Below, piece by piece: positions 12,287 to 34,181 of a DNA stretch of 48,330 bases. Both the position numbers and the translations under genes were made by a program. Source of the DNA: Akkermansiaceae bacterium (GTDB lineage Bacteria; Verrucomicrobiota; Verrucomicrobiia; Verrucomicrobiales; Akkermansiaceae); assembly GCA_903908495.1 (NCBI GenBank), contig CAIVSK010000336.1, positions 1-48,330 on the forward strand, in the 5' to 3' direction. Position 1 is the stretch's first letter; every line of letters starts with the position of its first letter. The notes below the pieces were generated by a model that saw only the letters and a list, made by a program, of their open reading frames with translations, was not told where the DNA came from and made no database searches.

Positions 12287-12419
12287 GGTTTTTTTCACGG
12301 GATTTCCACATTGTGTCATCTTTGTTGCAATTGATTCATTGGAGAATTGGGTTGCAGGGCTAGCTTTCGGCGCTTCAGCCCATGCGTCCGGCGCAAGAAT
12401 ATCCAAAGTAAACAACCAA

Positions 12420-15400
12420 ATGAAACAACTTGATTCACTATCCGTCAGAACTGGCGCATTGTTACTCGCATTCCTCGCCTGGCTGCCCATGGCGGATTCG
12501 TCGCACGCGGCGGCCTTCACCGCCGGCAATCTGGCAGTTTATCGCGTTGGCAGCGGAATCGGTTCGCTGATCTCCACCGGCAGCCCGGTCTTTATCGATG
12601 AATACACGCCCGGCGGCATTCTGGTGCAGTCCATCGCCATGCCGACGGTGGTTAGTGGAACTAACAAGCGCCTTATCGCCAGTGGCACCGCCACCTCAGA
12701 GGGCTTGCTGGCTTGCTCCACAGACGGGCGGTACCTGGTCGCCACCGGATATGACGCCGCGATTCCGACAACCGGCCTAACTGGCACAGCCTCAACGGCT
12801 GTCAACCGGGTGATTGGCCGGATAGATAGCAACGGATCAGTTGATACCTCCACGGCGCTTAGCGACGCCGCCACAGCAAACAATGCACGCAGTGCGGTAT
12901 CGGCGGACGGTAGCGAATTCTGGTTTGCAGGAGCTGCGGGCGGCATTCGCTATGCCCCACTTGGCGCGACCACTTCCACCCAGCTTAGCACGGGGTTGGC
13001 GAACAACCGCCAGGTGAACATCTTTAACAATCAACTCTACAGTTCAGATAGTTCTGGAACGGCACTCAGACTTGCCAGCATCGGCAGCGGACTGCCAACC
13101 ACATCGGGCCAGGCAATGACCAATCTGCCGGGCTTTGCGACATCCACCGGCAGTCCCTATTCATTCTACTTCGCCGACCTCAGTCCCGCGGTCGCCGGAT
13201 TGGATACTCTCTATGTCTGTGATGATGCGGCGGGCATCCAGAAGTTCTCCTTTGATGGATCCACGTGGACTGCCAAGGGATCCGTTGGCGCGGGTGCAGA
13301 TGCCTATCGTGGTATTGCCGGCACTGTTGCAGGTTCAACAGTCACGCTATATATCACACGCAAAGGAGGATCCGCCGCTGCTGGCGGCGGAGAGATCGCC
13401 AGCCTGATCGATAGCTCGGGTTACAGTGCAACCCTCACCGCAGTTCCCACATTGCTGGCCACGGCAGCTGCGAACACCGCCTTCCGCGGGATAGCCTTCG
13501 CTCCGCTGCCCCCCCCGACAATCGCGGGCGCAGCTACAGCCACCCCATACACCACTACCTACGGCACGGCCTCAACTGCCCAGACATTCCCGATTTCAGG
13601 ATCAGGCCTGAGCACCAACCTCACGGTGACCGCACCGACAGGCATTGACGTTTCAAGTGACGGAACAACTTACGGCAGCACTGCCACTTTCACCCAGAGC
13701 AATGGCACTGCAAGCGGCTCGCTGCGCATTCGTCTCGGCGCCAACGCCGCCGTCACAGGTTCTTACAATGGCTTGAATATCCAACTGACGAGTTCCGGCG
13801 CAACCCCGGTGAACATCACCACATCGGCCGCCGGCAACGGTGTGTCTGCAAAGGGCCTGACAATCACAGCCAACAATGTGTCCAAACAATACGGAGTCAC
13901 TTTAAGCAGCCCCGTTACTGGCTCGGCTGACTTCACCAACTCCGGTCTGATCAGCCCGGAATCCATCGGTTCGGTGACTCTCAGTTATGGCAACGGCGCG
14001 GCTGCAGGCGATGCCGCTGGATCCTACCTCGGTTCAGTCAATCCATCGGCGGCAACGGGCGGCACATTCAACACATCTAACTACTCGATCCAATATGTCG
14101 CCGGTGATCTCACTGTGACGCAGCCCCCTACAATCAGCCTTACCGGCACACTCACATCAGTGGATACGATCTATGGCACGGTATCGTCCACTCCAACGGG
14201 ATTCTCGGTCACAGGTGGATCTCTAACCAGCAATCTCACGGTCACCGCGCCGGCAGGATTTGAGGTGTCCAGTGATGGGGCCTACTCCAACAGCCTGAAT
14301 CTCACGCAAACCGGTGGCGTTGTCAGCGCCACTATCAGCGTCCGATTAGCGGCTACCACTGGAGTTGGCTCATACTCGGGCAATATCCTGGTCTCCGGCG
14401 GTGGGGCCGTGACACAGAGCATCACTGTGCCACCGAGTGCGGTATCAGCCCTGAGCCTTGCGATCACCGGAGTATCCGGCATTAGCAGACCCTATGACCG
14501 CACCACACCAGCCAGCGTGAGCGGCACTCCCAATCTGATCGGTGTGCTGGCAGCTGATTCCGGCAATGTAACCGTCGGCGGCACACCAACTGCAACCTTC
14601 ATCTCGGCGAGCGCCGGCACGGCCAAGCTGATCACCGTGACGGGTTATTCCCTCGCCGGTCCGGCCGCCTCCAATTACACGGTCACACAACCCACGGGCT
14701 TGACCGCCGACATCACGCCTCTCCAACTGACCATTCAAGGCGCTGCGGTCGTCTCCAAGCCCTTTGATGGCGATACCAATGCCGTCATCACCGGCACACT
14801 CGTTGGCATCATCGATCCTGATGTTGTCACCTTCAATGGCACGGGCACCTTCGCCTCCTTGGCCATCGGCAACGACATCGCGGTCACTTCAACCAGCACC
14901 ATTGGCGGCTCAGCCGTTGCCAACTACTCACTCACGCAGCCCACTGGTTTGGTGGGCAATATCACTGCGCCGCACACCGTGGACCTCTCCCGTTACGTCC
15001 GCGTCGGGCGCTACGATTTGCCCGAGCCCAGCCGCACCACGCCGCCGACCGGCAGCCTGCTTTGCCAGGAGGCATCGAACGTGACCTATAACTGGGACAC
15101 CGACACGATTTTCCTCACCGGCGATGGCGGCACTTCCGTTGTGCAAGTAACGAAGACCGGCCAGCTGATTGATTCGATGACGCTCGCGCTCAACCCCGCC
15201 CGCCGAGCAGGCACTGAGTTCGATGACACGGAAGCCCTCGCATACACAGGCAATGGCGAATTCGTGATGACAGAGGAACGCGAGCGCACGCTGGTGAAGT
15301 TCACCTATGTGCCCAACACCACGCTGCAACGCGCCGCAACGAAGACCATGAAGCTCGGCACCACCATCGGTAATATCGGCCTCGAAGGTGTGACATGGGA

Positions 15401-18400
15401 CCCGCTCACCGGCGGCTTCATTCTCATCAAGGAAAAACAGCCCAAAGGGATCTTCCAAACCAACATCGATTGGAATGCCCTCACAGCGACCAATGGCTCA
15501 CCCACCACGGCAAATTCGACAAATCTCTTCAACCCAGATCTGCTCAACACGCTTGATCTCTCCGACCTCTTCGCCTTGTCGAATCTGCCCGCGCTCACCG
15601 GCACGCCGGAAGCCAGCCATCTCCTCGTCATCAGCCAGGAGTCCGGTCAAATCCTCAACTGCGACCGCAGCGGCAACGTGTACAGCCGCCTTACCATCGT
15701 TGCCGACCCCGGTAGTCCATTGAGCGTGCCGGCCATGACGATGGAAGGCATTTGCATGGACCGCAGCGGCAACCTCTACGTCACCAACGAAGATGGCGGA
15801 GGCGACTTCGATCATCCACAGCTCTGGGTTTATGCGCTCTCCACAGCGACGAACCTTCCGCCCACTGCGGTGACCCTGACCTCCATCGTCAGTTCACTTC
15901 CAGAACTTCCGAGAGTTGCCAACGACATTCGCGTCGCCGACATCCTCGTCGTTGATGATGGCCTCGGACCCAACGCATTGTTCATCTCCGGGGCAGACGC
16001 GGCCTCGTTCAAGATCATAGGCACTGCCTTGTTCCTCAAAGCCGGTTCCACGCTCGATGCGGCGACAAAGTCCAGCTACACGGTCAACGTCAATGTCGAT
16101 GACGCCACCGTCGGCACCAGCCCTGATGCCAGCACAACATACCATCTGACTATCGTTACCGGCGCAGGTGCCACCCCGAACCTCATCATCACTGAAGTGG
16201 CTCCTTGGTCCAGCAGCAACAGCGGCCCAGCGCTTGCCGCCGACTGGTTCGAAGTGACCAACTACGGCATCGCCACCGTGGACCTCACGGGCTGGACCGT
16301 GGATGACAACTCCAACTCGTACGCTGTCTCGCTGCCCATCTTCGGTGCCAGCGGCATCGGTCCTGGCGAGTCCGTCATTTTTATCGAAACCGGCATCGAC
16401 TCCCAAGCGAACCTCGACCTGAAGGCCGCAGCGTTCAAGACGCTTTGGTTCGGAGACAATCCACCCGCCAATCTGCACTTCTGTGGCTACTCCGGTTCAG
16501 GTGTCGGCCTCAGCACGGCGGGTGATGCAGTGAACCTCTTCGACATCGGTGGCAACTTGCAGGCGCATGTGGACTTCGGCAGCAACACGGGCACTGCTGG
16601 AATATTCTACAGCTTCGACAACGCAGCGGGTTTGAACAAAGCCACCCTCTCAAATCTCAGCGTGGTGGGAGTTAGCGGTGCCATCATTGCCGCCAATGAC
16701 GCAAATGAAATCGGCTCTCCAGGCACCGTCGGTGTAGGAGCGACCCCGCTTGTGAGCATCGTCGCCACCGACGCCAGCGCGTCCGAGACCGGCACCGATC
16801 CAGGCAGCTTCCGCATCAGCCGCAGCGGCAGCACCGCTTCCACACTCACGGCGAATTACAGCATTGCCACTGGAACCGGACAAGCCACCGCTGCTGACTA
16901 CACGCCAGCGCTCACCGGGTCGGTGACGTTTGCCGTTGGTCAGGTGTATGTGGATATCACCATTACTCCGGTGGACGACATGATCGGCGAAGGCCCTGAA
17001 ACATTGACTCTAAGCATCACCGACACCGGAAGTTACGATGTGGGCACGTCCGGCACGGCAACCATCACCATCCTGGACAACGATGCATCAAACATGGCAC
17101 CGACCGCTATCGCCCTGACCAACACGGTCGCGACGATTTCCGAAGCAGCCAACACCGCCTCTAACATCCGCGTCGCAGACATCACTGTCACCGATGATGG
17201 CCAGGGCACCAACACCTTTGGAGTCACCGGCACCGACGCCGCGTTCTTCACCGTCGCCGGCAATTCGTTGTATCTCAAGGCTGGCACCACACTAAGCAAT
17301 GCTATCAAGCCAGGCTACAGCGTCACAGTCACCGTTGACGACATCACCCTCGGCTCTACTCCAGTCGCCAGCACCAACTTCACGCTCGCCGTCGCCACCT
17401 CCGTGGCCCCGGGCAGTATCATCATCTCAGAAGTCGCCCCGTGGTCCAGCACCGCTGCCTACAGCAACAATATCGGAGCGGACTGGTTTGAAGTAACCAA
17501 CATTGGCACCAGCATTGCGAATATCACCGGTTGGAAGATGGATGACAACTCCCACTCTTACGCCAGCGCGGCTCCTCTGTTGGGAATCACCAGTATTGCA
17601 CCGGGCGAGTCCGTGATCTTCATTGAAACACCTACCACGGCTCCTGGTGATCTCGCGACGAAGGCCGAAGCCTTCCGCGGCACTTGGTTTGGAGCTAATC
17701 CTCCTGCCGGCCTGCAAATCGGCGCTTACTCTGGCAGTGGCGTCGGTCTTAGCGGCTCCTCAGGTGATGAAGTGGTGCTCTTCGATGCCAGCGGAGCCAT
17801 TGTTACCGGTGTTAGCTTCGGTGCTGCGCCTGCAGCCGCACCTTTCGCAACATTCGACAATAAGGCCGGCACAGGTGGAACCACGCTTCCACTCCCCTCA
17901 ATCGCCACTCTCAGCGGCGCTGGCACCAACGGCGCATTCAAGGCCGTTAATGACACGGGCGAGGTCGGCTCACCGGGTTCCCTCAACAGTGTGGCCGTCA
18001 CGGTGTCTGCGGGCGATGTGACGCAAAGCAGTGCGATGCTCTGGGCGCATAGCCATGCAACCGGCACGGTTGCCTTTGAGTACTCCACAAGTCCGTCCTT
18101 CGCCGCCGGGGTGACCTTGATTACCTCCACCGTAACCGACGCCGCTTTACCGGTGAAAGTACCGATCACTGGCCTTACAGCTGGAACGGCCTACTACTAT
18201 CGTGCGACGACTCTGACTAACCAAGCGAGCGGCACCTTCAAGACACCTGCAGCGGCAGGCACCCTTGGTGGTCTCCACTTCGGCATCTCCGGCGACCAGC
18301 GCGGCGATCTCGCACCCTATCCGGCGGTCAAGAACGCCGCCGCTAAGGACCTTGATTACTTCCTGCTGTTCGGCGACAACATCTATGCCGACGTGGCCTC

Positions 18401-20288
18401 GCCGGACGTACCGGCACCACAGGCCCGCACGCTCGCTGACTACCGTAGCAAGTTCAATGAAGTGTATGCCCCTCGCTACGGCATGAACACCCTAGCCGAA
18501 CTGCGCGCTGCCACGGGCGTCTTTGCGGTGATCGATGACCACGAGGTGGCCAACAACTTCTCCGGTGGTGCCCTCCGAACGTCCGACTCCCGCTTCAGTG
18601 CCGATACCGGTACTTACATCAATCAGACGGAAACCTTTGCAAATGGTGTGCAAGCCTTCAATGAGTATCATCCGCTCTCCGATCAGAGTTATGGGGCGAC
18701 CGGCGATCCAATCACCGCCAACCACGCCAAGCTCTATCGCTACTCCACGCAGGGCAAGACGGCGGCGACCTTCGTGCTCGATACACGCTCCTTCCGCAGC
18801 GCACCGCTGCCATCGGTTACCGATATCACCAACCCGCTAGAGGTCGGTGGCTTCCTCGCCGCCTCGTTCACGCCGGGACGCACTTTGCTCGGATCCCAGC
18901 AAAAAGCCGACTTCAAGGCCGATCTGCTCGCCGCCCAAGCTGCCGGAATCGTTTGGAAATTCGTCTGCTGCCCGGAGCCAATCCAGAACTTCGGCCCGCT
19001 GGGAGCCGAGGACCGCTTTGAAGGCTATGCCGCCGAGCGCACGGACCTGCTGAAGTTTATCGACGACAATCACATTTCAAATGTGGTCTTTGTCACCGCC
19101 GATTTCCATGGCACCGTCATCAACCGCTTGTCCTATCAGACCGGAGCCTTCGGCCCGCAGATCCAGACCAACTCCATCGAGATCATCACGGGTGCCATCG
19201 CCTATGACAAACCGTTCGGCCCGACCATCGTGGATCTCGCCATCGCGGCCGGACTCGCGGCGCCCGGCACCGACGCTTACTATCAATCGCTGAGCGCACC
19301 GGGCAAGGAAGCCTTGGTGATGAACAACATCATCAATCCAAGTTTGGCCGCCCTTGGTTACAATCAGATCGGCCTCGCCACCAATCCGTTGCCCTTGTGC
19401 CACCTCATCAGCGGCCTCTATACCGCCAGTAACAGCTACGGCTGGACCGAGTTCACCATCGACGCTGCTACGCAGGAATTGAACGTGAAAACCTGGGGCA
19501 TCGCGCCATACAACAAGGCTCAGCTCGATGCCGATCCCGCGGCCATCACCGGACGCACTCCGGCGGTGGTCAGTGAGTTCGCCCTTGCCCTGAAGCCCTC
19601 CTTCAATCCGGCGACCATCGCGGGCCTAACAGCTCAGAGCCACTCTGCGACGATCAATCTGGCTAGCGCTTCCGGGGCTTACCCTGCCGGTGGGACTTTC
19701 TCCGGCGCTGGCGTGACTGGTGGCCTGTTTGATCCGGCGACCGTTGCACATGGTGTCCAGACCATCACGTACAGCTACACAGACCGCTTCGGCAGCTTGC
19801 AGAGTTCGACGTTCACCGTCACTGTGTCGCCGACCCCGCTGGAGGCCTGGCGTCTGGCGAATTTCGGGACCACCTCCAACACCGGTGATGCTGCCGACAC
19901 TGCTGACTTTGACCACGACGGCATTGCGAATTTGATGAATTACGCGTTGGGCCTCAACCCTACCGTCAACGCCGGGGTGGCCGGGTTGCCAATTGCCCTC
20001 AGTGGCGATCCTGATCCACTACTCAGCGATCGTCTGGCCCTCAGCGTCGTGCTGCCCAGCCCGAATCCCTCCGACGTAACATATACCGTGCAGGCGTCCG
20101 ACGATTTGACGACATGGGCGGACGTGGCATCGAAGACGGGTGCCGGCGATTGGCAATGGCTCGGTGGCGGAGCATCCCACATTCTTAGCTCCGGCGACGG
20201 ACCGGTCACCGTCAAGATTGGCGACCTCGTTCCGGCGGACGCCGAACACCCGCACCGCATGATGCGGCTCAAGGTTGCCATACCCTAA
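12420..20288 (+). CDS. Giant secreted phytase-like / PhoD phosphatase fusion protein
   Basis: 2622 residues from the ATG at 12420; an upstream in-frame TTG at 12339 lacks signal-peptide logic. A signal peptide ends near SSHAA. In order: an N-terminal propeller-like region (about 35-390); MBG/YDG-type beta modules (about 370-847); an SdiA-regulated or esterase-like phytase propeller (about 855-1138, with FDDTEALAY, GLEGVTWD and MEGICMD); a cadherin-like module; a lamin-tail domain (about 1253-1380); a Calx-beta domain (about 1443-1553); second cadherin-like and lamin-tail modules; then a PhoD-type phosphatase (about 1859-2393). The PhoD part shows SGDQRG (Asp1959), FGDNIYAD (Asp1986), IDDHE (His2041) and TADFHG (His2230), the expected metal ligands. 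The C-terminus has FDHDGIANL and a small beta module. The likely role is extracellular release of phosphate from organic esters. No Shine-Dalgarno sequence; followed by a strong terminator. Confidence 0.85.
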   Translation: MKQLDSLSVRTGALLLAFLAWLPMADSSHAAAFTAGNLAVYRVGSGIGSLISTGSPVFIDEYTPGGILVQSIAMPTVVSGTNKRLIASGTATSEGLLACSTDGRYLVATGYDAAIPTTGLTGTASTAVNRVIGRIDSNGSVDTSTALSDAATANNARSAVSADGSEFWFAGAAGGIRYAPLGATTSTQLSTGLANNRQVNIFNNQLYSSDSSGTALRLASIGSGLPTTSGQAMTNLPGFATSTGSPYSFYFADLSPAVAGLDTLYVCDDAAGIQKFSFDGSTWTAKGSVGAGADAYRGIAGTVAGSTVTLYITRKGGSAAAGGGEIASLIDSSGYSATLTAVPTLLATAAANTAFRGIAFAPLPPPTIAGAATATPYTTTYGTASTAQTFPISGSGLSTNLTVTAPTGIDVSSDGTTYGSTATFTQSNGTASGSLRIRLGANAAVTGSYNGLNIQLTSSGATPVNITTSAAGNGVSAKGLTITANNVSKQYGVTLSSPVTGSADFTNSGLISPESIGSVTLSYGNGAAAGDAAGSYLGSVNPSAATGGTFNTSNYSIQYVAGDLTVTQPPTISLTGTLTSVDTIYGTVSSTPTGFSVTGGSLTSNLTVTAPAGFEVSSDGAYSNSLNLTQTGGVVSATISVRLAATTGVGSYSGNILVSGGGAVTQSITVPPSAVSALSLAITGVSGISRPYDRTTPASVSGTPNLIGVLAADSGNVTVGGTPTATFISASAGTAKLITVTGYSLAGPAASNYTVTQPTGLTADITPLQLTIQGAAVVSKPFDGDTNAVITGTLVGIIDPDVVTFNGTGTFASLAIGNDIAVTSTSTIGGSAVANYSLTQPTGLVGNITAPHTVDLSRYVRVGRYDLPEPSRTTPPTGSLLCQEASNVTYNWDTDTIFLTGDGGTSVVQVTKTGQLIDSMTLALNPARRAGTEFDDTEALAYTGNGEFVMTEERERTLVKFTYVPNTTLQRAATKTMKLGTTIGNIGLEGVTWDPLTGGFILIKEKQPKGIFQTNIDWNALTATNGSPTTANSTNLFNPDLLNTLDLSDLFALSNLPALTGTPEASHLLVISQESGQILNCDRSGNVYSRLTIVADPGSPLSVPAMTMEGICMDRSGNLYVTNEDGGGDFDHPQLWVYALSTATNLPPTAVTLTSIVSSLPELPRVANDIRVADILVVDDGLGPNALFISGADAASFKIIGTALFLKAGSTLDAATKSSYTVNVNVDDATVGTSPDASTTYHLTIVTGAGATPNLIITEVAPWSSSNSGPALAADWFEVTNYGIATVDLTGWTVDDNSNSYAVSLPIFGASGIGPGESVIFIETGIDSQANLDLKAAAFKTLWFGDNPPANLHFCGYSGSGVGLSTAGDAVNLFDIGGNLQAHVDFGSNTGTAGIFYSFDNAAGLNKATLSNLSVVGVSGAIIAANDANEIGSPGTVGVGATPLVSIVATDASASETGTDPGSFRISRSGSTASTLTANYSIATGTGQATAADYTPALTGSVTFAVGQVYVDITITPVDDMIGEGPETLTLSITDTGSYDVGTSGTATITILDNDASNMAPTAIALTNTVATISEAANTASNIRVADITVTDDGQGTNTFGVTGTDAAFFTVAGNSLYLKAGTTLSNAIKPGYSVTVTVDDITLGSTPVASTNFTLAVATSVAPGSIIISEVAPWSSTAAYSNNIGADWFEVTNIGTSIANITGWKMDDNSHSYASAAPLLGITSIAPGESVIFIETPTTAPGDLATKAEAFRGTWFGANPPAGLQIGAYSGSGVGLSGSSGDEVVLFDASGAIVTGVSFGAAPAAAPFATFDNKAGTGGTTLPLPSIATLSGAGTNGAFKAVNDTGEVGSPGSLNSVAVTVSAGDVTQSSAMLWAHSHATGTVAFEYSTSPSFAAGVTLITSTVTDAALPVKVPITGLTAGTAYYYRATTLTNQASGTFKTPAAAGTLGGLHFGISGDQRGDLAPYPAVKNAAAKDLDYFLLFGDNIYADVASPDVPAPQARTLADYRSKFNEVYAPRYGMNTLAELRAATGVFAVIDDHEVANNFSGGALRTSDSRFSADTGTYINQTETFANGVQAFNEYHPLSDQSYGATGDPITANHAKLYRYSTQGKTAATFVLDTRSFRSAPLPSVTDITNPLEVGGFLAASFTPGRTLLGSQQKADFKADLLAAQAAGIVWKFVCCPEPIQNFGPLGAEDRFEGYAAERTDLLKFIDDNHISNVVFVTADFHGTVINRLSYQTGAFGPQIQTNSIEIITGAIAYDKPFGPTIVDLAIAAGLAAPGTDAYYQSLSAPGKEALVMNNIINPSLAALGYNQIGLATNPLPLCHLISGLYTASNSYGWTEFTIDAATQELNVKTWGIAPYNKAQLDADPAAITGRTPAVVSEFALALKPSFNPATIAGLTAQSHSATINLASASGAYPAGGTFSGAGVTGGLFDPATVAHGVQTITYSYTDRFGSLQSSTFTVTVSPTPLEAWRLANFGTTSNTGDAADTADFDHDGIANLMNYALGLNPTVNAGVAGLPIALSGDPDPLLSDRLALSVVLPSPNPSDVTYTVQASDDLTTWADVASKTGAGDWQWLGGGASHILSSGDGPVTVKIGDLVPADAEHPHRMMRLKVAIP

Positions 20289-20361: not shown

Positions 20362-20524
20362 TCGTTCAGCAGTGAACTGCCGACAATCGCCATCTCGGAG
20401 ATCCGTCGACCTAACAAACCGCATGTCATTGTTTGATCACGAAATTGAGCATCCATGGCGGCGTGTCGAAGTTGTCACAATCTCCAGATTCACAAATGCA
20501 CCGGATTCGACATAAGTATTGCGC

Positions 20525-21256
20525 ATGCCGATATACATCACAGAAATCCAGCTCCGCCCGCGGGAGTTTCTTACAATCACCGTTTTCATAGCAATATGTG
20601 TCGCTATTCTTGGACGGCTGGCATTCGGATCTCCGGAACAAGCCGTAATTCATGCAACAGGATGGGGCGAGCGGAAAGTCGAGACAGCGAATTGCGCGTT
20701 ATCTGCGCAAGGCACGCCGCCATCGGTCGCCGTCATCATGCCTGACCCGCGCTTCGCCCGGCAACAACCGACAGTGGTGCCAGATATTCTCTCGCCGGAG
20801 GCCCGCCAGATGGCGTTCACCATTCAAAACAAGTATCGTTGCGCCCACTGCTGCGACGGCGGAGGTACGCCGCAGTGCCTGCCCGGGCTGGGCGAGGACG
20901 GCAGCCCGGATGCCAAGGTCCTAGTTGCGGCCCTGAAAAATTCGTTGGGCACCTTACCGGACGACTGTTATGTGTCCACCGCGCTGCCCAAGGTGGTAGA
21001 TACGAAGACCCCGGCGGAGTTGATGAATGTTCTTTACGAAGATCTACTCAAGCGTCCCAATCCGATCAAGCTCAGGATGTTGTTCATCATCGCGGAAATT
21101 GCCGATCATCCGCTCGCGGCTAGTGCCCTGGCTGAGCTCCGCACGACTCTCAATCTGGACCACCAGCATGACTGGCCGCGCTGGGAGCAGGCGGTCACCC
21201 AGCAATGCGTCCACGAAGAGCGCGGCATGCGCAGCGACAACTGCCGCATCCACTGA
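20525..21256 (+). CDS. Membrane-anchored Cys-rich protein of unknown function
   Basis: 243 residues from the ATG at 20525. I do not recognise a family. A single hydrophobic segment at about residues 15-35 should anchor the protein, with the rest probably outside. The centre carries a Cys cluster, YRCAHCCDGGGTPQC, which could bind metal or form disulfides. The C-terminal half is predicted helical and ends with two further Cys. It lies between two secreted phosphate-releasing enzymes and is separated from the first by a strong terminator, so it needs its own promoter. TTGTCACAATC lies about 50 bases upstream, resembling half of the palindromes found elsewhere in the window. Confidence 0.65.
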   Translation: MPIYITEIQLRPREFLTITVFIAICVAILGRLAFGSPEQAVIHATGWGERKVETANCALSAQGTPPSVAVIMPDPRFARQQPTVVPDILSPEARQMAFTIQNKYRCAHCCDGGGTPQCLPGLGEDGSPDAKVLVAALKNSLGTLPDDCYVSTALPKVVDTKTPAELMNVLYEDLLKRPNPIKLRMLFIIAEIADHPLAASALAELRTTLNLDHQHDWPRWEQAVTQQCVHEERGMRSDNCRIH

Positions 21257-26550: not shown

Positions 26551-26607
26551 GCATTGCGACTTGATAGCGGGCGATGGGGGGGGCAAACATTGCACCTTGT
26601 CCCGCTC

Positions 26608-28641
26608 ATGAATCTTCGCATCACCGTACTGCTGCTTATCAGCATCTTCTTTGCCGTGTTGCTGGGTATCGGGTGGTTCCAGCACGTGATCTTGATGCGG
26701 ATGCATCAAGAAAGCATCCATGAAATATTGGTGGCGTCCAAATACGAAGTGACGGCTTTGCATGCCCAAGTCGCATTCAAGAAACAGGTCCAGGAATGGA
26801 AGAACGTGCTGATCCGCGGTCACAACCCGGCCGACCGGGCGAAGTACTGGGATTCGTTCTTGGCGGAGGAGATGCGGACTCGCGGGCTGGTGGAGGAAAT
26901 TGCGCGGAGTTTTCCGTCCTCCTCGCGGATCGGTGTCGTGGCCAAGGGGTTTCTGGACGAGCACCGGAAAATGGGGAACAAGTATCGGACCGCGCTGACT
27001 GCATTCAGTGATGGCTCGGACCTAGCCTACCAGCGGTCCGACGCCTTGGTGCGGGGGCAGGATCGGAAACCGACCGATTTGTTTGATACCGTCGTGGATC
27101 TGGTAGCGGAGGAACGAGCCAAAACGATCCAACGGACCGACACGGAAATGGCGCAGAAAGAGCGGTGGTCGCGCTGGTACGCCTTTGGCACCGCTGGCAC
27201 GGCAATGCTGGTGCTCCTGCTGGCCATGTCCAAATGGATCACCAAGCCGGTCAATGAAGCCATCCGCCAGGCACGCAGTATCGCCAACGGCGATCTGGAT
27301 ATCAGGATCAAAGAAGGCCCCATCCGCGAATTGCGCAATTTGCAACATGCGCTCAACAGCATGGCGACCCAAATCAAAGCCAGTTATGCGAGCATCGCGG
27401 CGTCCAACCGGGAGTTGGTCATCGCCCGCGACAGCGCCATCGAATCGTCCCACCTCAAGAGCCAATTCCTGACGAACATGAGTCACGAAATCCGCACCCC
27501 CTTGAACGGCGTCATCGGCATGACCCATTTGTTGTTGGCCAGCTCGCTCAGCGACGAGCAGCGCAGGTATGCCCAGATGGTCCACTCCAGCGGGGAAATC
27601 CTCATCAAGCTCATCAACGACATCCTGGATCTTGCCAAAATCGAAGCCGGCAAGCTCGACTTGGAAATCCTGGACTTCAACCTGCCCGACCTGCTGCATG
27701 AACTTGATGGACTGCTGGCGCTGCATGCCCGTGGCAAGGGTCTCCAATTCAGTTGCACCGTCGCCCCGGGCACGCCGGCCCGACTGCGTGGCGATCCTAA
27801 CCGGTTGCGGCAAGTGTTGCTCAATTTGGCCGGCAATGCCATCAAATTCACCCCGCAGGGCGAGGTTGCCGTACATGCCAGCGTGGTCTCGGCCAGCGCC
27901 ACGAGCATCGTCATACGCTTTGTGGTGCGGGATACGGGCATCGGCATTCCGGCGGACAAACAGGCGTTGCTGTTCAGGAACTTCAGTCAGGTGGATGCCT
28001 CGACGACCCGGCATTACGGCGGCTCGGGTCTGGGTTTGGTCATCTCCAAACAACTCGTCGACCTCATGGACGGCGAAATCGGTGTCACGAGTGTTGTGGG
28101 TCACGGTTCGGAGTTTTGGTTCGCCGTTCGTTTTGATACCGGTAAGCAGCCCATCCAATCGTGCGAACCGCTGACATTGGCGACCAGGCACAGCCACTGG
28201 CCGCCCGTGCGGGTGTTGCTGGCCGAAGACAACCTCATCAACCAAAAGGTGGCCATTGGCCTGCTGCAACCTTTCGGGCTGCAGGTGGACGTGGTGGTCA
28301 ACGGCTCGGAAGCAGTTCAAGCCCTTGCCAGCCACTCCTATGCACTGGTTCTCATGGACATGCAGATGCCCGGGATGGGCGGCTTGGAAGCCACCCGCTT
28401 GATCCGCGGCCCGCTCTCCGCAGTGACCAACCGGCAGGTGCCGATCATCGCAATGACCGCCAATGCCATGCAAAACGACCGCCGGCATTGTATGGACGCC
28501 GGGATGAATGACTTTCTTGCCAAGCCGCTCAACCCGCACATGCTTGCAACCATGCTGCAACAATGGCTGCCCTGCGATCCCGTGGCCACGTGCGAGCCGG
28601 AAGGATTGGGGTCCACAGGGCACCCAGACGTTCAACCGTAA
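26608..28641 (+). CDS. Hybrid sensor histidine kinase with C-terminal receiver domain
   Basis: 677 residues. The ATG at 26608 begins the first membrane helix (about 5-25) and is preferred to an in-frame TTG at 26554. A helical sensor region follows (about 30-188), then a second membrane helix (about 190-211), HAMP (about 212-265), HisKA with phospho-acceptor His293 in NMSHEIRTPLNG, HATPase with DTGIGIP and GGSGLGL, and a receiver domain with LAEDN and phospho-acceptor Asp584 in LMDMQMPG. No HPt domain is present, so the phosphate must go to a separate relay protein. Its last 10 bases overlap the end of the convergent pstB2 gene. Position next to phosphate genes suggests, but does not prove, a phosphate signal. 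No cognate DNA-binding regulator is seen nearby. Confidence 0.9.
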   Translation: MNLRITVLLLISIFFAVLLGIGWFQHVILMRMHQESIHEILVASKYEVTALHAQVAFKKQVQEWKNVLIRGHNPADRAKYWDSFLAEEMRTRGLVEEIARSFPSSSRIGVVAKGFLDEHRKMGNKYRTALTAFSDGSDLAYQRSDALVRGQDRKPTDLFDTVVDLVAEERAKTIQRTDTEMAQKERWSRWYAFGTAGTAMLVLLLAMSKWITKPVNEAIRQARSIANGDLDIRIKEGPIRELRNLQHALNSMATQIKASYASIAASNRELVIARDSAIESSHLKSQFLTNMSHEIRTPLNGVIGMTHLLLASSLSDEQRRYAQMVHSSGEILIKLINDILDLAKIEAGKLDLEILDFNLPDLLHELDGLLALHARGKGLQFSCTVAPGTPARLRGDPNRLRQVLLNLAGNAIKFTPQGEVAVHASVVSASATSIVIRFVVRDTGIGIPADKQALLFRNFSQVDASTTRHYGGSGLGLVISKQLVDLMDGEIGVTSVVGHGSEFWFAVRFDTGKQPIQSCEPLTLATRHSHWPPVRVLLAEDNLINQKVAIGLLQPFGLQVDVVVNGSEAVQALASHSYALVLMDMQMPGMGGLEATRLIRGPLSAVTNRQVPIIAMTANAMQNDRRHCMDAGMNDFLAKPLNPHMLATMLQQWLPCDPVATCEPEGLGSTGHPDVQP

Positions 28642-29408
28642 CGTCCTTCGATGTATTCGGTGGTCCTCGGGTCCTTGGGGTTAACGAACAATTCCGCAGT
28701 GCGTGAGTGTTCGATGAGTTCGCCCATCAGCATGAAAATGCATTCGTCGCTGGTGCGGCGTGCCTGCGCCATGTTGTGGGTCACGATGACGATGGTGTAG
28801 CGGCCCTTGAGTGCGAACATCAACTCCTCAATGCCGCGGGTGCCCTCGACGTCGAGCGCGGAGCAAGGCTCGTCCATCAGGATGATCTCCGGCTTGAGTG
28901 GGAGCAGACGGGCGATGCAGAGCTTTTGCTGCTGCTCCAATTGCAGGCCCGTGGCACGCTGATTGAGACGATCCTTGAGGTCTTTCCAGAGCCCCACTTC
29001 GGTGAGCGCCTTTTCAACGGCTTCATCGAGCGAGGCGCGGGTCAGGCGGCTGTGTCCATTGTGAATCCTAAGGCCGAAGACCACGTTTTCGAAAATCGAA
29101 ATGGGCAGTGGATTGGGCCGCTGAAACACCATTCCAACCGACTTGCGCAGTTCCACCAACGCAACATCCGGGTCATATATGTTTTTGCCTAGCAGCTTGA
29201 TCTCGCCCTGGGTGGAGACGTAGCCATAGCGCTCGTTGACGCGGTTGAAGCAACGCAGAAGCGTGGTCTTGCCGCAACCGGACGGGCCGATGAGCGAGGT
29301 GATGAGTCCGTGCTTGATCTCGACGTTGATGTCTATGAGTGCCTGGAACTTGGCATACCAGAGGCTCAGGTTACGGGTGGTGATGCTGAATGCCGGAGAG
29401 TCGCTCAT
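28632..29408 (-). CDS. pstB: PstB-type phosphate transporter ATPase 2, with degenerate ABC signature
   Basis: 258 residues, last gene of the pst operon, 15 bases after pstB1. Walker A (GPSGCGKT, 41-48), Q-loop (Gln96 in VFQRPNP), Walker B with catalytic Glu180 (LMDEP) and switch His211 (VTHNM) are all intact. The ABC signature expected as LSGGQQQR reads LQLEQQQK (155-162), so it cannot cap the ATP site of a partner in the normal way. In an ABC dimer each ATP site combines the Walker motifs of one subunit with the signature of the other, so a PstB2 homodimer should not hydrolyse ATP well. The defect is exactly complementary to that of PstB1. The 3' end overlaps the convergent kinase gene by 10 bases. 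Confidence 0.92.
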   Translation of the reverse strand: MSDSPAFSITTRNLSLWYAKFQALIDINVEIKHGLITSLIGPSGCGKTTLLRCFNRVNERYGYVSTQGEIKLLGKNIYDPDVALVELRKSVGMVFQRPNPLPISIFENVVFGLRIHNGHSRLTRASLDEAVEKALTEVGLWKDLKDRLNQRATGLQLEQQQKLCIARLLPLKPEIILMDEPCSALDVEGTRGIEELMFALKGRYTIVIVTHNMAQARRTSDECIFMLMGELIEHSRTAELFVNPKDPRTTEYIEGRYG

Positions 29409-29423
29409 TTGCAGTTTTCTTTC

Positions 29424-30185
29424 TCAACCGAAAATCCCCAAAACGTAATCGCGCGTCCGTTGGTCCTTGGGTTGATCGCCGAATATGACGTCATTGTCGG
29501 CCAATTCGATGATTTCGCCATTCCAGAGGAACATCGTGCGGTCGGCCAAGCGCCGCGCCTGCTGGGTTAGGTTGGTGACGAGAATGATCGTCATCTCCTT
29601 GCGCAATTCCTTCAGCACTTCCTCAATGCGCATCGTGGTCACTGGGTCGATGGCGATGGAGAATTCGTCGAGACAGAGGACCTCCGGTTGGTGCGAGAGG
29701 GCGCGGGCGATGGTCAGGCGCTGTTGCTGGCCGCCGGAGAGTTTGGTGCCGAGCGAATCCAAGCGGTCCTTCACTTCATCCCACAGCGCGGACTGGCGGA
29801 GGCATTGCTCGACGATGGGGTCGAGTTCGCTCTTCTTTGTCATTCCAGCACACCGCGGAGCGAAGGCCACATTGTTGTAAATGCTGATAGGCAGCCCCAC
29901 CGGCAAGGGCGCGACCATCCCAATCTTACGGCGGAGGTTGTAGAGATCCTTCACCTTGCGCACGTCCTGGCCGTCCACCTTGATGGTGCCGGAAACCGTG
30001 GCGTCGGTGCTTTGCTCGATGGTACGATTCAAGCAGCGAAGCAACGAGGTCTTGGCGGACTGGGCCGGACCGATGACGCCAAAGATTTCGTTGCGGTGGA
30101 TATCAAACGTGACGCCGTGGATGACCTCCTTGGTTCCGAAGGCAAGGCGCAGGTCACGGACTTCGATGTGTTTGTCAGGGGTCAT
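29424..30185 (-). CDS. pstB: PstB-type phosphate transporter ATPase 1, with degenerate Walker A, Q- and H-loops
   Basis: 253 residues, starting 6 bases after the pstA stop. It aligns along its whole length with PstB. The signature is perfect (LSGGQQQR, 149-156), but the nucleotide-binding side is damaged. Walker A reads GPAQSAKT (39-46), replacing both loop glycines; the Q-loop Gln is Pro93 (MVAPLP); the switch His is Asn205 (VTNLT). Walker B keeps Glu174 (LCLDEF). All losses affect the ATP site built on this subunit, while the part it lends to the partner site is preserved. The frame is intact with no stops, so this is selected divergence rather than decay. It is predicted to be the non-catalytic half of a PstB1-PstB2 heterodimer. 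Confidence 0.92.
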   Translation of the reverse strand: MTPDKHIEVRDLRLAFGTKEVIHGVTFDIHRNEIFGVIGPAQSAKTSLLRCLNRTIEQSTDATVSGTIKVDGQDVRKVKDLYNLRRKIGMVAPLPVGLPISIYNNVAFAPRCAGMTKKSELDPIVEQCLRQSALWDEVKDRLDSLGTKLSGGQQQRLTIARALSHQPEVLCLDEFSIAIDPVTTMRIEEVLKELRKEMTIILVTNLTQQARRLADRTMFLWNGEIIELADNDVIFGDQPKDQRTRDYVLGIFG

Positions 30186-30191
30186 CGGGAG

Positions 30192-31097
30192 TTACCATTT
30201 TTTCCGGTTGCGGAGCCAGACGCGAAGGATGATGGCGGCGGCGTTGACCACCAGCACCAGGCCTAACAGAACGACCGCGGTGGCAAAAGGAATCGACTCC
30301 CTCACGCCGGGCACCTGCGTCGAGATATTGTAGAGGTGGGTGGAGAGGGCCATGCACTGCTCGTCGAGACGGTAGGGAAAGAGATCGCCTTTTTGCACGG
30401 CTTTGAAGTAGATGGCACCCGTGAACATGACCGGCGCGGTTTCACCGGCGGCGCGGCTGACTTGCAGAATCACGCCGGTGAGGATTCCGCTGATGGAATT
30501 GGGCAGGACGATGGCTCTGATGGTTTGCCAGCGGGTGGCACCGACATTCCAGCAAGCCTCGCGGAAAGTGCGCGGCACGCTGGCCAACGACTCGCGCGTG
30601 CTGGCGATGATGACCGGCAGGGTCATGATGGCCAGAGTGAGTGAGGCGGAGATGATTGAGCAGCCGAATTTGGCGGCATAGACGAACGCACCGAGGCCGA
30701 AGAGTGCGTGCACGATGCTAGGGACACCCGCCAGATTGATCACGGCAAGGTTGATGATCCGGTTGAACCAGTTCTCCTTGGCATATTCGTTGAGATAGAC
30801 GGCAGCCAGAATGCCGATCGGCGCGGATACGGCCAACGAGATGAAGACGAGATAAATGGTGCCGACGAAGGCCGGCCAGATGCCGCCATCTTTGATGCCG
30901 CGAATCGGCACGTCGAGGATGAATCCCACACTCAACGAGGGCCAGGCGCGCTGGATGAGGTAGCCGAGAATGAGCAGCAGGGGCACAATCATCGATGCCG
31001 ACATGATGCGGAAAATCCACTTGGCGATTGCTTCCTGGCAAAGCTTGCGCCGCACCATCGGGGTTTCGGTAAACCTCTTGTTAGGATCGGCGTTCAT
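30192..31097 (-). CDS. pstA: Phosphate ABC transporter permease PstA
   Basis: 301 residues. The start overlaps the pstC stop (ATGA). Six membrane helices are evident, the first at about residues 33-52. The cytoplasmic coupling loop carries FREACWNVGATRWQ, the EAA-type motif that docks on the ATPases. With PstC it forms the membrane channel for phosphate from PstS. Two different ATPase genes follow immediately; asymmetric PstA and PstC could each pair with a specific one. Confidence 0.95.
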   Translation of the reverse strand: MNADPNKRFTETPMVRRKLCQEAIAKWIFRIMSASMIVPLLLILGYLIQRAWPSLSVGFILDVPIRGIKDGGIWPAFVGTIYLVFISLAVSAPIGILAAVYLNEYAKENWFNRIINLAVINLAGVPSIVHALFGLGAFVYAAKFGCSIISASLTLAIMTLPVIIASTRESLASVPRTFREACWNVGATRWQTIRAIVLPNSISGILTGVILQVSRAAGETAPVMFTGAIYFKAVQKGDLFPYRLDEQCMALSTHLYNISTQVPGVRESIPFATAVVLLGLVLVVNAAAIILRVWLRNRKKW

Positions 31098-32041
31098 TGT
31101 TTCTTGATGCCGCGGATGGCGAGGTCGGCGGCCAGGTTGACGAAAAATGTGATGACGAAAAGCAGCACTCCGGTGAGGAAGAGCACGCGGTAATGATCGG
31201 AATCGGCGGGCGCTTCACCCAATTCGGCGGCGATGTTCGCGGTGAGTGTGCGCACCGAGTCGAGGACGCTGTGAGGGACATGCACCGCGTGGCCGGTGGC
31301 CATGAGCACGGCCATCGTCTCGCCGACGCCACGCCCCACGCCAAGCAAAACCGCGGCGAGCAGGCCGTTCTTGGCAGCGGGCAGCAGCACGCGCCACGTC
31401 AATTGCCACTTGGTCACACCCAGCGCGATGGCCGCCTCGCGATAGGAATCGGGCACGGCCTTGAGCGCATCCTCGCCGATGGACACGATGATGGGCACGC
31501 TCATTAATGCGATGATGATGCCGGCGTTGAGGACGTTGACCCCGACGGCGGCGCCCGTGAATTGCACGATGAGCTTGCTCATGACCGTGAGCCCGATGAA
31601 GCCCCACACGACCGACGGGATGGCGGCGAGCAATTCGATGACGATTTTGAGTGTTTCCTTGACTTTCGGGCCGCAGAACTCGGAGAGATAGATGGCCGCG
31701 CCCAGGCCGAAGGGAACGGCGATGAGCATTGCCACCCCGGTGACCGCAAAGGTGCCGGCGATCATGGCCAACACGCCGTAACGGACGTTCACTTCCGATG
31801 TCGGATACCACTCGGTGCTGAAAAGAAACTGACCGAGGTTGAATCTGCCGGAAAACAGGACCGGAGCCGCCTCCTTGAAGACGAAGATGAAAATGCTCAG
31901 GACGAAAATGATCGCGCTGATCCCGCACAAATAAATCAGGACAGTGAGCAACCGCTCGCCCAACACCGCCCACAGCGGGCGGGTGGCTTGGCGCACGGCG
32001 AAGCTGAAACCGGGGGATTTTCGCGGGGCAGGAACAGGCAT
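31094..32041 (-). CDS. pstC: Phosphate ABC transporter permease PstC
   Basis: 315 residues from the ATG at 32041. The frame is open to a TTG at 32101, which would add 20 residues; the later ATG gives a usual PstC N-terminus (short basic tail, then a helix at about 30-55). The large outer loop, six main helices and the coupling loop YREAAIALGVTKWQ fit PstC. The gene overlaps pstA by 4 bases. A 98-base gap separates it from pstS, the largest in the operon, and contains no terminator. Confidence 0.94.
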   Translation of the reverse strand: MPVPAPRKSPGFSFAVRQATRPLWAVLGERLLTVLIYLCGISAIIFVLSIFIFVFKEAAPVLFSGRFNLGQFLFSTEWYPTSEVNVRYGVLAMIAGTFAVTGVAMLIAVPFGLGAAIYLSEFCGPKVKETLKIVIELLAAIPSVVWGFIGLTVMSKLIVQFTGAAVGVNVLNAGIIIALMSVPIIVSIGEDALKAVPDSYREAAIALGVTKWQLTWRVLLPAAKNGLLAAVLLGVGRGVGETMAVLMATGHAVHVPHSVLDSVRTLTANIAAELGEAPADSDHYRVLFLTGVLLFVITFFVNLAADLAIRGIKKQ

Positions 32042-32139
32042 GGTAAGATCTTCGGGCGCGAATGAGTCACAATTCACCGCGCCGACAGGCATCAGAGCCA
32101 AGCGGCGCGGCGCGGGATTTCACGGCCATGGGACGCCAA

Positions 32140-33054
32140 TCACTTCTTGCGCAGTTCCGGGGCAAGTGGCACATAGCCGCTCTGCTCGACGATTTTCTGG
32201 CCGGCGTCGGTCATGGTCCAGTTGATATACTCGGCGACCTCGCCCGTCGGTTCACCCAGAGTATAGACCTGCAGGGAGCGGGCGATGGGATAGCTCTTAT
32301 TGAGTGTGTTGGCGACGCTGGGTTCGATGGCCGGGTCACCACTCTTCGTGGAAACCTTCAACATCTTGACCTTGCCGGGTTCGTTGTAGCCCATGCCGCT
32401 GTAGCCGATGGCCCCGATGGTGCCCGCAACCAGTTCCACCACTTCCTTCGAGCCGTTCATATCCCGCGAGCCTAACTTGAAGTCCTTGTTTTTGAGCACG
32501 TGCTCCCGCAGAAACTCGTAAGTGCCGGAGCTGGACTGGCGGCTGACGCGGATGATCTCGTCGCTGCCCGCTGGCATCTTGATGCCCAGGTCGGACCACT
32601 TGGTGATGGAGCCACCTTCCTTGTAAATCTCGGCGATTTGTTCGGTGGAGATTTCGTTGATCGGGTTGTCCTTGTGAACGTAGATGCCCAGCGCATCGTA
32701 GCCGATAATGAATTCCTTGGGGTCCTTGCCACTGGCCTTCTTGGCCTGCTCGATTTCCGCGGGCTTCATGTTGCGGCTGGCGTCGGCGATGTCAGTGGTT
32801 CCCTTGATGAGGGCAGCGATGCCCACGCCAGAGCCGCCGCCGGAAACTTCGATTTCCACTGCGGGTTTGACCTTTTTGTATTCCATGGCCCAGTCTCCGG
32901 CGAGGTTCACCATGGTGTCCGAGCCTTTAACCTGAATGGCGGCTTTCTTGTCCCCTGCGGATTTCCCGCCGCAACCGGTGAGCAGGAAGCTTGCCGACAG
33001 ACAGGTCACGGCACCCACGCGGGTACTCCAGTTCAAAATATGTTTCTTGGTCAT
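32140..33054 (-). CDS. pstS: Phosphate-binding lipoprotein PstS
   Basis: 304 residues. The signal peptide ends in a lipobox LLTGC with Cys28 as the lipidation site, so the protein is tethered to a membrane rather than free in the periplasm. The mature part begins with a phosphate-binding loop (KGSDTM), then SGGGSGVGI and SRQSSSGTYE, the three phosphate-contacting segments of PstS-like proteins. Its start lies inside the phoU stop (ATGA), so it is translationally coupled to phoU, an unusual order because in the best-known operons phoU is last. Confidence 0.93.
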   Translation of the reverse strand: MTKKHILNWSTRVGAVTCLSASFLLTGCGGKSAGDKKAAIQVKGSDTMVNLAGDWAMEYKKVKPAVEIEVSGGGSGVGIAALIKGTTDIADASRNMKPAEIEQAKKASGKDPKEFIIGYDALGIYVHKDNPINEISTEQIAEIYKEGGSITKWSDLGIKMPAGSDEIIRVSRQSSSGTYEFLREHVLKNKDFKLGSRDMNGSKEVVELVAGTIGAIGYSGMGYNEPGKVKMLKVSTKSGDPAIEPSVANTLNKSYPIARSLQVYTLGEPTGEVAEYINWTMTDAGQKIVEQSGYVPLAPELRKK

Positions 33055-34181
33055 TGGATGGGCTGGTTGTTGATGGTTGGTTGGTTGGTGTTCTCTCCGA
33101 GAATGGCGCCGACGAGGTCGCTGATTTGCTCGCGAATGAATTGGAAGGCGCTTGCGTAGGCGGCGCTCACTTCGGCGTGGGTTCCCTGGACCTGCGAGGG
33201 GTCACTTACGCTCCAGTCGAGGAAGACCTCCTTGCGCGGCTTGCGTGGGAAGGCTTTCCTGGCTTCCGGCGCCAGCACGACGATGACGTGATAGTGGTCC
33301 AGATTGGGCACTTGATTGAGCGCCTTGGGCACCATGCGCGCCACATCGAGCCCCTGTTCCTTCATGAAACTAACGGTCATCGGATCGATCGGCCGCGGAT
33401 CCAGGCCGGCGCTGCTGAAAATGAATTTTGGCTGGTTGAGCGAAACAGCGATGGCCTCGGCCATTTGGCTGCAGCAGGAGTTATGTTCATCGACGAACAA
33501 CATCCGAAACGCCTCCGCGCCGGCGTGTCTCACGTACTCACCAGTACACATGTAGAGCGTCTCCATGCAGATATTGCGGGCGAGGTCTGAGACACGCTCA
33601 AGCCGGCGGCTTATCATCACGAGCGGATTGAGTGCATCGAAGGGCAGCTTGTTCTCGCGGAAGAGGGCGATGAGATCGCTGTTCAACTTGCTCTTGAGCA
33701 AATCCACGGCATGCTCGATTTCAATGGTCGTGCGGGCCAGGTCAGCGTCTTGATTCACAAACGCCAGGGTCGCGTCGCGCAGCATCGGAATGGAGAGGTC
33801 GGCAATTTCCTGGAAGCGATCGATGGGAACCTCCGCAGACAGATCCAGCAGCTTGAGCGTCTGCCGCGCGATGCTCTCGGCGCAATCTCCCACGCGTTCC
33901 AGTTCGAGATTGACCTTGATGGTGGCATAGGCGAAGCGCAGGAGGCTGGCCACCGGTTGCTGGCGGACGATGAACTCCAGGCAAAGGCGGTCCACTTCCC
34001 GTTCCAACTCGTCGATGTACTGGTCGCGCAGGATGATTGCATAGGCGGTCTGGCGATTGCGCCCGGCCAGAGCCTTGACGCAATCCCTAAGGGCCTTTTC
34101 GCCGAGCACGGACATTTCGGTGAGTTTGCCGCGGATGCGGCCAACCTCACGCTGCAACGATTCCTCTAGGTGTGTTGACAT
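33051..34181 (-). CDS. phoU: PhoU fused to an ArsC/low-molecular-weight phosphatase domain with a dead active site
   Basis: 376 residues; normal PhoU is about 220-240. Residues about 1-220 contain the two PhoU repeats (LERVGDCAESIAR and LERVSDLARNI, each with the conserved E-x-x-x-D metal-binding pattern). Residues about 225-365 are an arsenate reductase/LMW-phosphatase fold: MLFVDEHNSCCSQMAEA aligns with the usual LFVCTGNSCRSQMAEA. The nucleophilic Cys is Asp231 and the phosphate-binding Arg is Cys237, so CX5R chemistry is lost while the fold and the downstream SQMAEA helix are kept. A later LDWSVSDPSQVQG matches the region that normally carries the general acid (DP). The domain may bind phosphate or arsenate as a sensor. 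First gene of the operon, overlapping pstS by 4 bases. Confidence 0.93.
   Translation of the reverse strand: MSTHLEESLQREVGRIRGKLTEMSVLGEKALRDCVKALAGRNRQTAYAIILRDQYIDELEREVDRLCLEFIVRQQPVASLLRFAYATIKVNLELERVGDCAESIARQTLKLLDLSAEVPIDRFQEIADLSIPMLRDATLAFVNQDADLARTTIEIEHAVDLLKSKLNSDLIALFRENKLPFDALNPLVMISRRLERVSDLARNICMETLYMCTGEYVRHAGAEAFRMLFVDEHNSCCSQMAEAIAVSLNQPKFIFSSAGLDPRPIDPMTVSFMKEQGLDVARMVPKALNQVPNLDHYHVIVVLAPEARKAFPRKPRKEVFLDWSVSDPSQVQGTHAEVSAAYASAFQFIREQISDLVGAILGENTNQPTINNQPIQ

What the first reader, a model, noticed from the sequence alone, without database searches (positions are those of the whole stretch)
12420..20288. One polypeptide carrying both a phytase-like propeller and a PhoD phosphatase
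The protein contains an SdiA-regulated/esterase-like phytase propeller and, about 700 residues later, a PhoD domain with all expected metal ligands visible, spaced by lamin-tail, cadherin-like and Calx-beta modules. Two phosphoester hydrolases in one chain could process inositol phosphates or nucleic acids stepwise on the cell surface. I do not recall a described enzyme with this combination.
Basis: partly seen in the sequence, partly recalled or inferred. Interest (0 to 1): 0.65.

Follow-up and report, generated by a model that had tools for sequence, protein, structure and literature searches.

The report
Modular secreted phosphatase with propeller-lamin-tail cassette
A bacterium's giant, probably exported protein joins a PhoD-like phosphatase to a conserved propeller-cadherin-lamin-tail cassette that other bacteria join to different phosphate-releasing enzymes, so the propeller is more likely a docking part than a second, phytase enzyme.

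Summary
The open frame is real: ATG at 12420, 2622 aa, stop at 20288. It carries a PhoD-like phosphatase (PF09423, E 7.8e-44) and an upstream propeller. The propeller is an SdiA-regulated/YjiK domain (PF06977, E 1.4e-38); its phytase-like score (PF13449, 25.3 bits) is below the curated cut-off of 27.6. Six of seven mutagenised PhoD metal ligands are kept; the iron-binding Cys is an Asp. A second giant phosphoesterase and a Pst/PhoU locus lie downstream.

In 80 named relatives (best of 217) a lamin tail follows the propeller after 122-127 residues in 77; the other three are cut or broken there. Record titles span seven phyla. 33 of 80 chains carry a recognised phosphoesterase, 47 none. PhoD domains of three subfamilies sit on this cassette.

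Best reading: an exported phosphate-scavenging phosphatase whose propeller cassette docks to a substrate or surface. Two hydrolases in this chain are not shown, though some relatives' chains hold two or three such domains. It is a new variant of the known lamin-tail surface phosphoesterases.

The parts
12420..20288 (+). whole gene, 2622 aa from ATG (2649 aa from an in-frame TTG at 12339)
12420..12509 (+). signal-peptide-like N-terminus (by eye; no predictor available)
   Evidence: sequence
12510..13511 (+). N-terminal domain aa 58-391, no Pfam match; AF2 model (pLDDT 79.7, pTM 0.85, 7 sequences) matches YWTD-type propellers (nidogen 1npe Z 23.4, LRP6 Z about 22)
13512..14993 (+). linker region with two YDG stretches (best aa 706-786)
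14994..15818 (+). SdiA-regulated/YjiK-type propeller, aa 886-1160
   Evidence: PF06977 133 bits; YjiK 3qqz Z 26.4, rmsd 2.5, 233 aligned
15819..16181 (+). spacer between propeller and LTD, cadherin-like only by sub-cut-off hits in relatives
   Evidence: spacing 122-127 aa in 77 of 80 relatives, 3 cut or broken
16182..16583 (+). lamin tail domain 1, aa 1282-1415
16752..17084 (+). Calx-beta domain, aa 1472-1582
17091..17417 (+). second spacer, similar by eye to the first
   Evidence: sequence, position
17418..17825 (+). lamin tail domain 2, aa 1694-1829
18003..18239 (+). PhoD N-terminal domain, aa 1889-1967
   Evidence: PF16655 41.6 bits
18288..19205 (+). PhoD-like phosphatase (Pfam span aa 1994-2289); ligand positions D1986 (in place of Cys), D2013, D2066, D2067, N2072, N2073, D2255
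   Evidence: PF09423 150.6 bits
20519..21256 (+). 245-aa gene without Pfam match, with a homologue at the same place in L046 and L047
21350..26446 (+). second giant phosphoesterase: LTD, Metallophos, 5'-nucleotidase C-terminal domain, CBM96, ASH
26554..28641 (+). hybrid histidine kinase with response-regulator domain
28632..34181 (-). Pst-like phosphate uptake locus: two ABC ATPases, two permeases, PBP_like_2 binding protein, PhoU joined to LMWPc
   Evidence: Pst names inferred from Pfam families and gene order

Best explanation
The gene encodes an exported, multi-domain phosphate-scavenging phosphatase. The PhoD-like domain would hydrolyse phosphate esters (diesters or monoesters) outside the cytoplasm, and the released phosphate would be taken up by the neighbouring Pst system. 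The SdiA-regulated propeller, its spacer and the lamin tail form one conserved cassette that most likely binds a substrate or surface (extracellular nucleic acid, a polyanion, or the cell envelope) and is combined in different bacteria with different phosphoester hydrolases. Shown here: the domains, the fixed cassette, its different catalytic partners, the Pst neighbourhood. Inferred: export, phosphatase activity, phosphate scavenging, the docking role of the cassette.
For: PhoD and PhoD_N above cut-offs; six of seven mutagenised ligands kept. A second giant phosphoesterase and Pst/PhoU genes within the same 22 kb; L046 and L047 keep PhoD giant, 245-aa gene and nucleotidase giant in that order, with a further PhoD protein and a similar kinase upstream. 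LTD follows the propeller after 122-127 aa in 77 of 80, the three others being cut or broken there; median identity to the window 62% propeller, 50% spacer, 55% LTD over those 77. 33 of 80 carry a recognised phosphoesterase. PhoD domains on the cassette fall in three places of the PhoD tree, AU p 8e-67 against one clade; the PhoD label needs six changes on the propeller tree. In Aphanizomenon (L096) the gene next door is a 2052-aa frame with GDPD and phytase-like domains. Precedent for LTD-fused surface phosphoesterases: ShfP (PMC11188070, section 6 read).
Against: 47 of 80 relatives have the cassette with no recognised phosphoesterase (five of these touch a locus end and one is broken by a stop), and in Flavobacterium L123 the five neighbours scanned are not phosphate genes, so the cassette is not tied to phosphate. 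PstS or PstC was found in only 2 of 92 sources (window, L053), many of them short. None of the eight other phylum giants with the propeller has PhoD. No Pho box better than shuffles (recalled E. coli consensus). The Cys-to-Asp change could alter metal use; the cyanobacterial cassette PhoDs (L086, L087, L096) depart at further ligand positions. ExeM without its LTD kept reduced activity in vitro and near wild-type activity on plates; Xds without its LTD kept activity and localisation (passages).
Confidence: 0.6

Rival explanations
1. Two working phosphoester hydrolases in one chain: the propeller is a metal-dependent phytase-like esterase that acts before or after PhoD.
For: Sub-cut-off PF13449 match in the window; propellers of L035-L038 pass that cut-off. 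13 invariant acidic residues in 87 propellers, of which D963, E965, E980, E1016, E1032, E1136 and E1151 are also in YjiK. Conserved propeller with no recognised enzyme beside it in 47 of 80 chains would suit an enzyme.
Against: PF06977 is the far better match, and beta-propeller phytase (PF02333) is not among the Pfam hits at E 0.1. Profile comparison with relatives' PF13449 domains: probability 1%, E 0.05, Neff under 2. No assay of the SdiA-regulated or PF13449 domain was seen in the papers I opened. Some relatives carry a separate PF13449 domain in the same chain as the propeller.
Confidence: 0.17
2. The cassette is an adhesin or structural surface unit unrelated to phosphate, and the PhoD domain acts on an envelope or matrix polymer, for remodelling rather than nutrition.
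For: 47 of 80 have no recognised enzyme; their 63 scanned pieces show binding, structural or sorting families among the 25 of 31 families listed. ShfP's authors propose hydrolysis of a cell-surface matrix component for a comparable protein.
Against: Pst/PhoU and a second phosphoesterase close by in the window. In the pieces scanned, recognised enzymes are phosphoesterases except one GDSL lipase in L073, though my own seeds looked for phosphoesterases first and chains with such a seed hit were not all scanned with Pfam.
Confidence: 0.18
3. The PhoD-like domain is degenerate and the chain is a binding protein.
For: Fe-ligand Cys replaced; C180A abolished activity in B. subtilis PhoD.
Against: Replacement is by Asp, which I recall purple acid phosphatases use at the equivalent place; it is shared by L046-L048, L086, L087, L096 and others, and the six other ligands are kept in the window.
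Confidence: 0.05

Closest known systems
ShfP of Bacillus subtilis and the LTD/adhesion-domain-fused calcineurin-like surface phosphoesterases (PMC11188070: section 6 read, other passages seen)
   Same: secreted multi-domain chain with LTD, Ig or cadherin modules and a calcineurin-superfamily phosphoesterase; beta-propeller fusions (PQQ type) are mentioned
   Different: ShfP's catalytic domain is another calcineurin-like clade than PhoD; no SdiA-regulated propeller with a fixed-spaced LTD is described in what I read
B. subtilis PhoD (2yeq; PMC4223295: section 17 and passages read)
   Same: PF09423 match, PhoD_N domain, six of seven mutagenised metal ligands
   Different: Fe ligand Cys180 is Asp1986 here; the propellers and LTDs are extra
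YjiK (3qqz) and CarP-type SdiA-regulated propellers (PMC10574481 and PMC1084347: passages)
   Same: propeller family and fold (Z 26.4), seven of the invariant acids
   Different: YjiK is a short protein; LTD and phosphatase are absent from the solved chain
LTD-bearing extracellular nucleases ExeM (PMC6085458), Xds (PMC6746945) and the Izemoplasma LTD nuclease (PMC8289736); passages only
   Same: signal sequence, LTD, and a phosphoester-cleaving domain in one chain
   Different: EEP or other nuclease and OB domains; no propeller or PhoD described
Psip1 with an added phytase-like domain in some cyanobacteria (PMC11098088: passages)
   Same: alkaline phosphatase with a phytase-like domain in one chain
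   Different: Psip1 is another phosphatase family

Membership tests
PhoD-like phosphatase (Pfam PF09423) | profile match above curated cut-off, with PhoD_N | tested here: met
   150.6 bits vs 27; PhoD_N 41.6 vs 30
Canonical PhoD (Fe/Ca enzyme) | Fe-ligand cysteine | tested here: not met
   Cys180 aligns with Asp1986; sequence alignment only
Canonical PhoD (Fe/Ca enzyme) | D207, D265, D266, N271, N272, D436 equivalents | tested here: met
   D2013, D2066, D2067, N2072, N2073, D2255
Canonical PhoD (Fe/Ca enzyme) | NCBIfam equivalog NF058638 cut-off | tested here: not met
   72.1 bits vs 1000
Phytase-like PF13449 | profile match above curated cut-off | tested here: not met
   25.3 bits vs 27.6; four relatives' propellers pass
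Beta-propeller phytase (PF02333) | profile match | tested here: not met
   not among Pfam hits at E 0.1
Beta-propeller phytase (PF02333) | fold match to solved phytases | tested here: inconclusive
   not among the 50 rows listed
SdiA-regulated / YjiK | profile match and fold | tested here: met
   133 bits vs 21; 3qqz Z 26.4
LTD-fused surface phosphoesterases (ShfP-like kind) | LTD and phosphoesterase in one chain | tested here: met
LTD-fused surface phosphoesterases (ShfP-like kind) | export and surface location | not testable with these tools
   signal-like N-terminus by eye only
ExeM/Xds extracellular nucleases | EEP nuclease domain | tested here: not met
   no EEP hit in the window protein; present in some cassette relatives

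The most novel reading that the evidence does not exclude
The SdiA-regulated propeller, its spacer and the lamin tail are one undescribed surface cassette, shared between distant bacterial phyla and repeatedly fitted with different phosphoester hydrolases (PhoD of three subfamilies, 5'-nucleotidase, EEP, phytase-like), sometimes two or three in a chain: a docking platform for extracellular phosphate harvest whose ligand is unknown.
Probability: 0.45. Interest if true: 0.6.

Novelty: new variant of a known kind. Interest (0 to 1): 0.42.

Why it matters
Organic phosphorus breakdown is usually counted gene by gene (phoD, phoX, phytase). Chains that join several phosphoesterases, or one with a conserved docking cassette, are labelled by one of their domains, and a 'phytase-like' or 'SdiA-regulated' label would mislead. 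A propeller with 13 invariant acidic residues in 87 copies and no known ligand, in records labelled with seven phyla, is also a concrete target for finding what the SdiA-regulated domain does.

Tried and rejected
Phytase reading of the propeller: PF13449 under cut-off in the window, little profile similarity to relatives' PF13449 domains, no phytase among the listed fold rows (absence there proves nothing). Five-bladed glutaminyl cyclases are next best in fold (Z about 21); I do not infer that activity.

Pho box upstream of the gene and its neighbours: no better than shuffled sequence, best p 0.13, at another gene; the consensus was recalled from E. coli and may not apply.

Viral collection: one weak match (28% identity) to the PhoD part of the query, not followed. 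Plasmid collection: PhoD part under 60% identity in 67 records; propeller under 60% in 293 records, the best 51% in a Comamonadaceae plasmid, the rest of the ten rows listed 25-28%; not followed.

Literature: ten library searches, of which one search was for the PhoD structure only; I saw the listed rows, not every hit. None of the listed papers is on an SdiA-regulated domain joined to PhoD. The founding paper on CarP is not held.

Limits: the relatives are the best 80 of 217, found with patterns that lie in the propeller but ranked with a query that reaches some 20 residues into the spacer. 12 of the 80 frames run off the 3' end of their locus and 3 off the 5' end (two of these both), so modules may be hidden; in the 'none' class this concerns L077, L079, L081, L082 and L115, and L063 is broken by a stop. 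The EEP count includes a 38-residue hit in L070 and one Pfam hit in L109 added by hand. Phylum labels come from record titles; several bins look misnamed. The split of records into MAG and non-MAG failed (the prefix had been stripped) and is not used. L116's phytase-like domain lies in the next frame and is not counted. The propeller tree was a quick one with 33 of 83 inner branches open. The propeller and N-terminal models rest on 9 and 7 sequences.

Full report
What is there. Pfam gives, in order, YDG stretches, SdiA-regulated (aa 910-1151, 133 bits), LTD, Calx-beta, LTD, PhoD_N and PhoD (150.6 bits); Phytase-like scores 25.3 bits against a cut-off of 27.6. NCBIfam's PhoD equivalog is far below its cut-off (72.1 against 1000 bits). 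By sequence the nearest solved chains are 9uya and 2yeq for the PhoD part and YjiK (3qqz) for the propeller. In the same genome PF06977 occurs once, here; PhoD has four matches, one of them under the cut-off.

The PhoD site. In B. subtilis PhoD, C180A, D265A, N271A, N272A and D436A abolish activity and D207A and D266A reduce it drastically (PMC4223295, section 17). The window keeps D2013, D2066, D2067, N2072, N2073 and D2255, and has Asp1986 where the cysteine sits. The same Asp is in L046-L048, L086, L087, L096 and others; L039P, L085 and L125 have Cys. L086, L087 and L096 depart from the window at the DDHE and NN positions as well. I recall that purple acid phosphatases use Asp at the cysteine's place, so activity is likely, perhaps with another metal set.

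The propeller. An AlphaFold model (pLDDT 75.0, pTM 0.79) matches YjiK best (Z 26.4, rmsd 2.5, 233 aligned), then glutaminyl cyclases (Z about 21). In 87 propellers 43 positions are invariant, 13 of them acidic, and seven of those acids are also in YjiK. None of the papers I opened gives it an enzyme activity; CarP, with the same domain, is linked to calcium homeostasis (PMC10574481, passages).

A second propeller. The N-terminal domain (aa 58-391) has no Pfam match. Its model (pLDDT 79.7, pTM 0.85) matches nidogen and LRP6 YWTD propellers (Z 22-23). It recurs in L046, L047, L092, L093, L100, L124 and L125.

Relatives in the phylum. Of 387 genomes, 27 have PF06977 and 100 have PhoD. Nine PF06977 matches lie in frames over 1000 aa, the window's included; the other matches lie in frames of 265-780 aa. 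The eight other giants were scanned: all have the propeller and LTD; L035, L036 and L042 carry choice-of-anchor I and a 5'-nucleotidase C-terminal domain; L039, L040 and L041 score 141-147 bits for PF13449 over two stretches, the best one C-terminal; L037 and L038 have no such C-terminal module. None of the eight shows PhoD at E 0.01. In L039 a separate PhoD gene lies next door.

Relatives elsewhere. A scan of named genomes with the propeller alignment found 217 relatives, of which the best 80 were kept. Their titles fall in seven phyla: Verrucomicrobiota 22, Bacteroidota 18, Cyanobacteriota 14, Pseudomonadota 11, Actinomycetota 7, Planctomycetota 5, Acidobacteriota 3. Some bins look misnamed, but records titled as strains (Nostoc, Flavobacterium, Siccirubricoccus, Patulibacter, Cerasicoccus) cover five of the seven. 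An LTD follows the propeller after 122-127 aa in 77 of 80; the other three (L063, L070, L115) are cut or broken just after the propeller. The scan's patterns lie in the propeller, so this is not built in. 33 of 80 carry a recognised phosphoesterase: 18 with 5'-nucleotidase, 9 with EEP, 8 with PhoD, 2 with phytase-like, 1 with another metallophosphoesterase, some with several. 47 carry none; a Pfam scan of 63 pieces from them showed only binding, structural and sorting families among the 25 of 31 families listed.

Exchange of modules. On the propeller tree the PhoD label needs six changes and the 5'-nucleotidase label twelve (quick method, many open forks). The PhoD domains of nine cassette chains, the window's included, need three changes among 23 PhoD domains (shuffled mean 7.4, so the label is clustered), and one clade is rejected (p-AU 8e-67). 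Long branches are present, I had already seen the motifs when I named the group, and the PhoD piece of the broken L063 was counted outside it. So PhoD joined this cassette, or was swapped on it, more than once.

Neighbourhood. Downstream lie a 245-aa orphan, a 1698-aa protein with LTD, Metallophos and 5'-nucleotidase domains, a hybrid kinase, and on the other strand two ABC ATPases, two permeases, a PBP_like_2 protein and PhoU-LMWPc. L046 and L047 (Akkermansiaceae bins, 94-95% identical propellers) keep PhoD giant, orphan and nucleotidase giant in that order; a similar kinase and a further PhoD protein lie upstream instead. In Aphanizomenon L096 the upstream neighbour is a 2052-aa frame with GDPD and phytase-like domains; in Flavobacterium L123 the five neighbours scanned are not phosphate genes. 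PstS or PstC turned up in 2 of 92 sources.

Reading. Phosphate scavenging is well supported for the window by its PhoD domain and neighbours. The cassette as a docking unit is an inference from its fixed shape and differing partners, weakened by the 47 chains without a recognised partner, for which it must do something alone. The two-hydrolase claim for this chain is not shown, and the propellers of four relatives that pass the phytase-like cut-off keep it open.

Against what is known. LTD fused to surface phosphoesterases is a published kind (ShfP, PMC11188070 section 6; ExeM and Xds, passages). In the rows listed by ten library searches I did not find the SdiA-regulated propeller cassette or its union with PhoD.

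Noticed in passing
window 33051-34181 (-): PhoU joined to a low-molecular-weight phosphotyrosine phosphatase-like (LMWPc) domain inside the Pst locus.
   Followed up: no
window 12510-13511 (+): Unannotated N-terminal domain modelled as a YWTD-type propeller, recurring in seven relatives.
   Followed up: partly
window 20519-21256 (+): 245-aa gene without Pfam match, with a homologue between the two giant phosphoesterases in L046 and L047.
   Followed up: no
L093 and L124: Choice-of-anchor I, 5'-nucleotidase and phytase-like domains behind the same propeller cassette in one chain of over 3500 aa.
   Followed up: partly
L048: PhoD and 5'-nucleotidase in one cassette chain; the window has PhoD and a different 5'-nucleotidase type in two separate genes.
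   Followed up: partly
L063 852-8336: Cyanobium record: propeller frame and LTD-plus-PhoD frame lie in the same frame, parted by a single stop codon.
   Followed up: no
L096 3578-9733 (+): 2052-aa frame with GDPD, phytase-like and RTX matches beside the propeller-PhoD gene in Aphanizomenon.
   Followed up: no
window 38184-43418 (-): 1744-aa protein with eleven passenger-associated transport repeat stretches, autotransporter-like.
   Followed up: no
window 98-3232 (+): Protein joining a hydrazine synthase alpha-type middle domain with a sulfatase-modifying-factor domain.
   Followed up: no
L083, L104, L105, L070: Record titles naming Bordetella, Akkermansia muciniphila, Bifidobacterium and Kuenenia on MAG bins look unreliable as taxon labels.
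   Followed up: no
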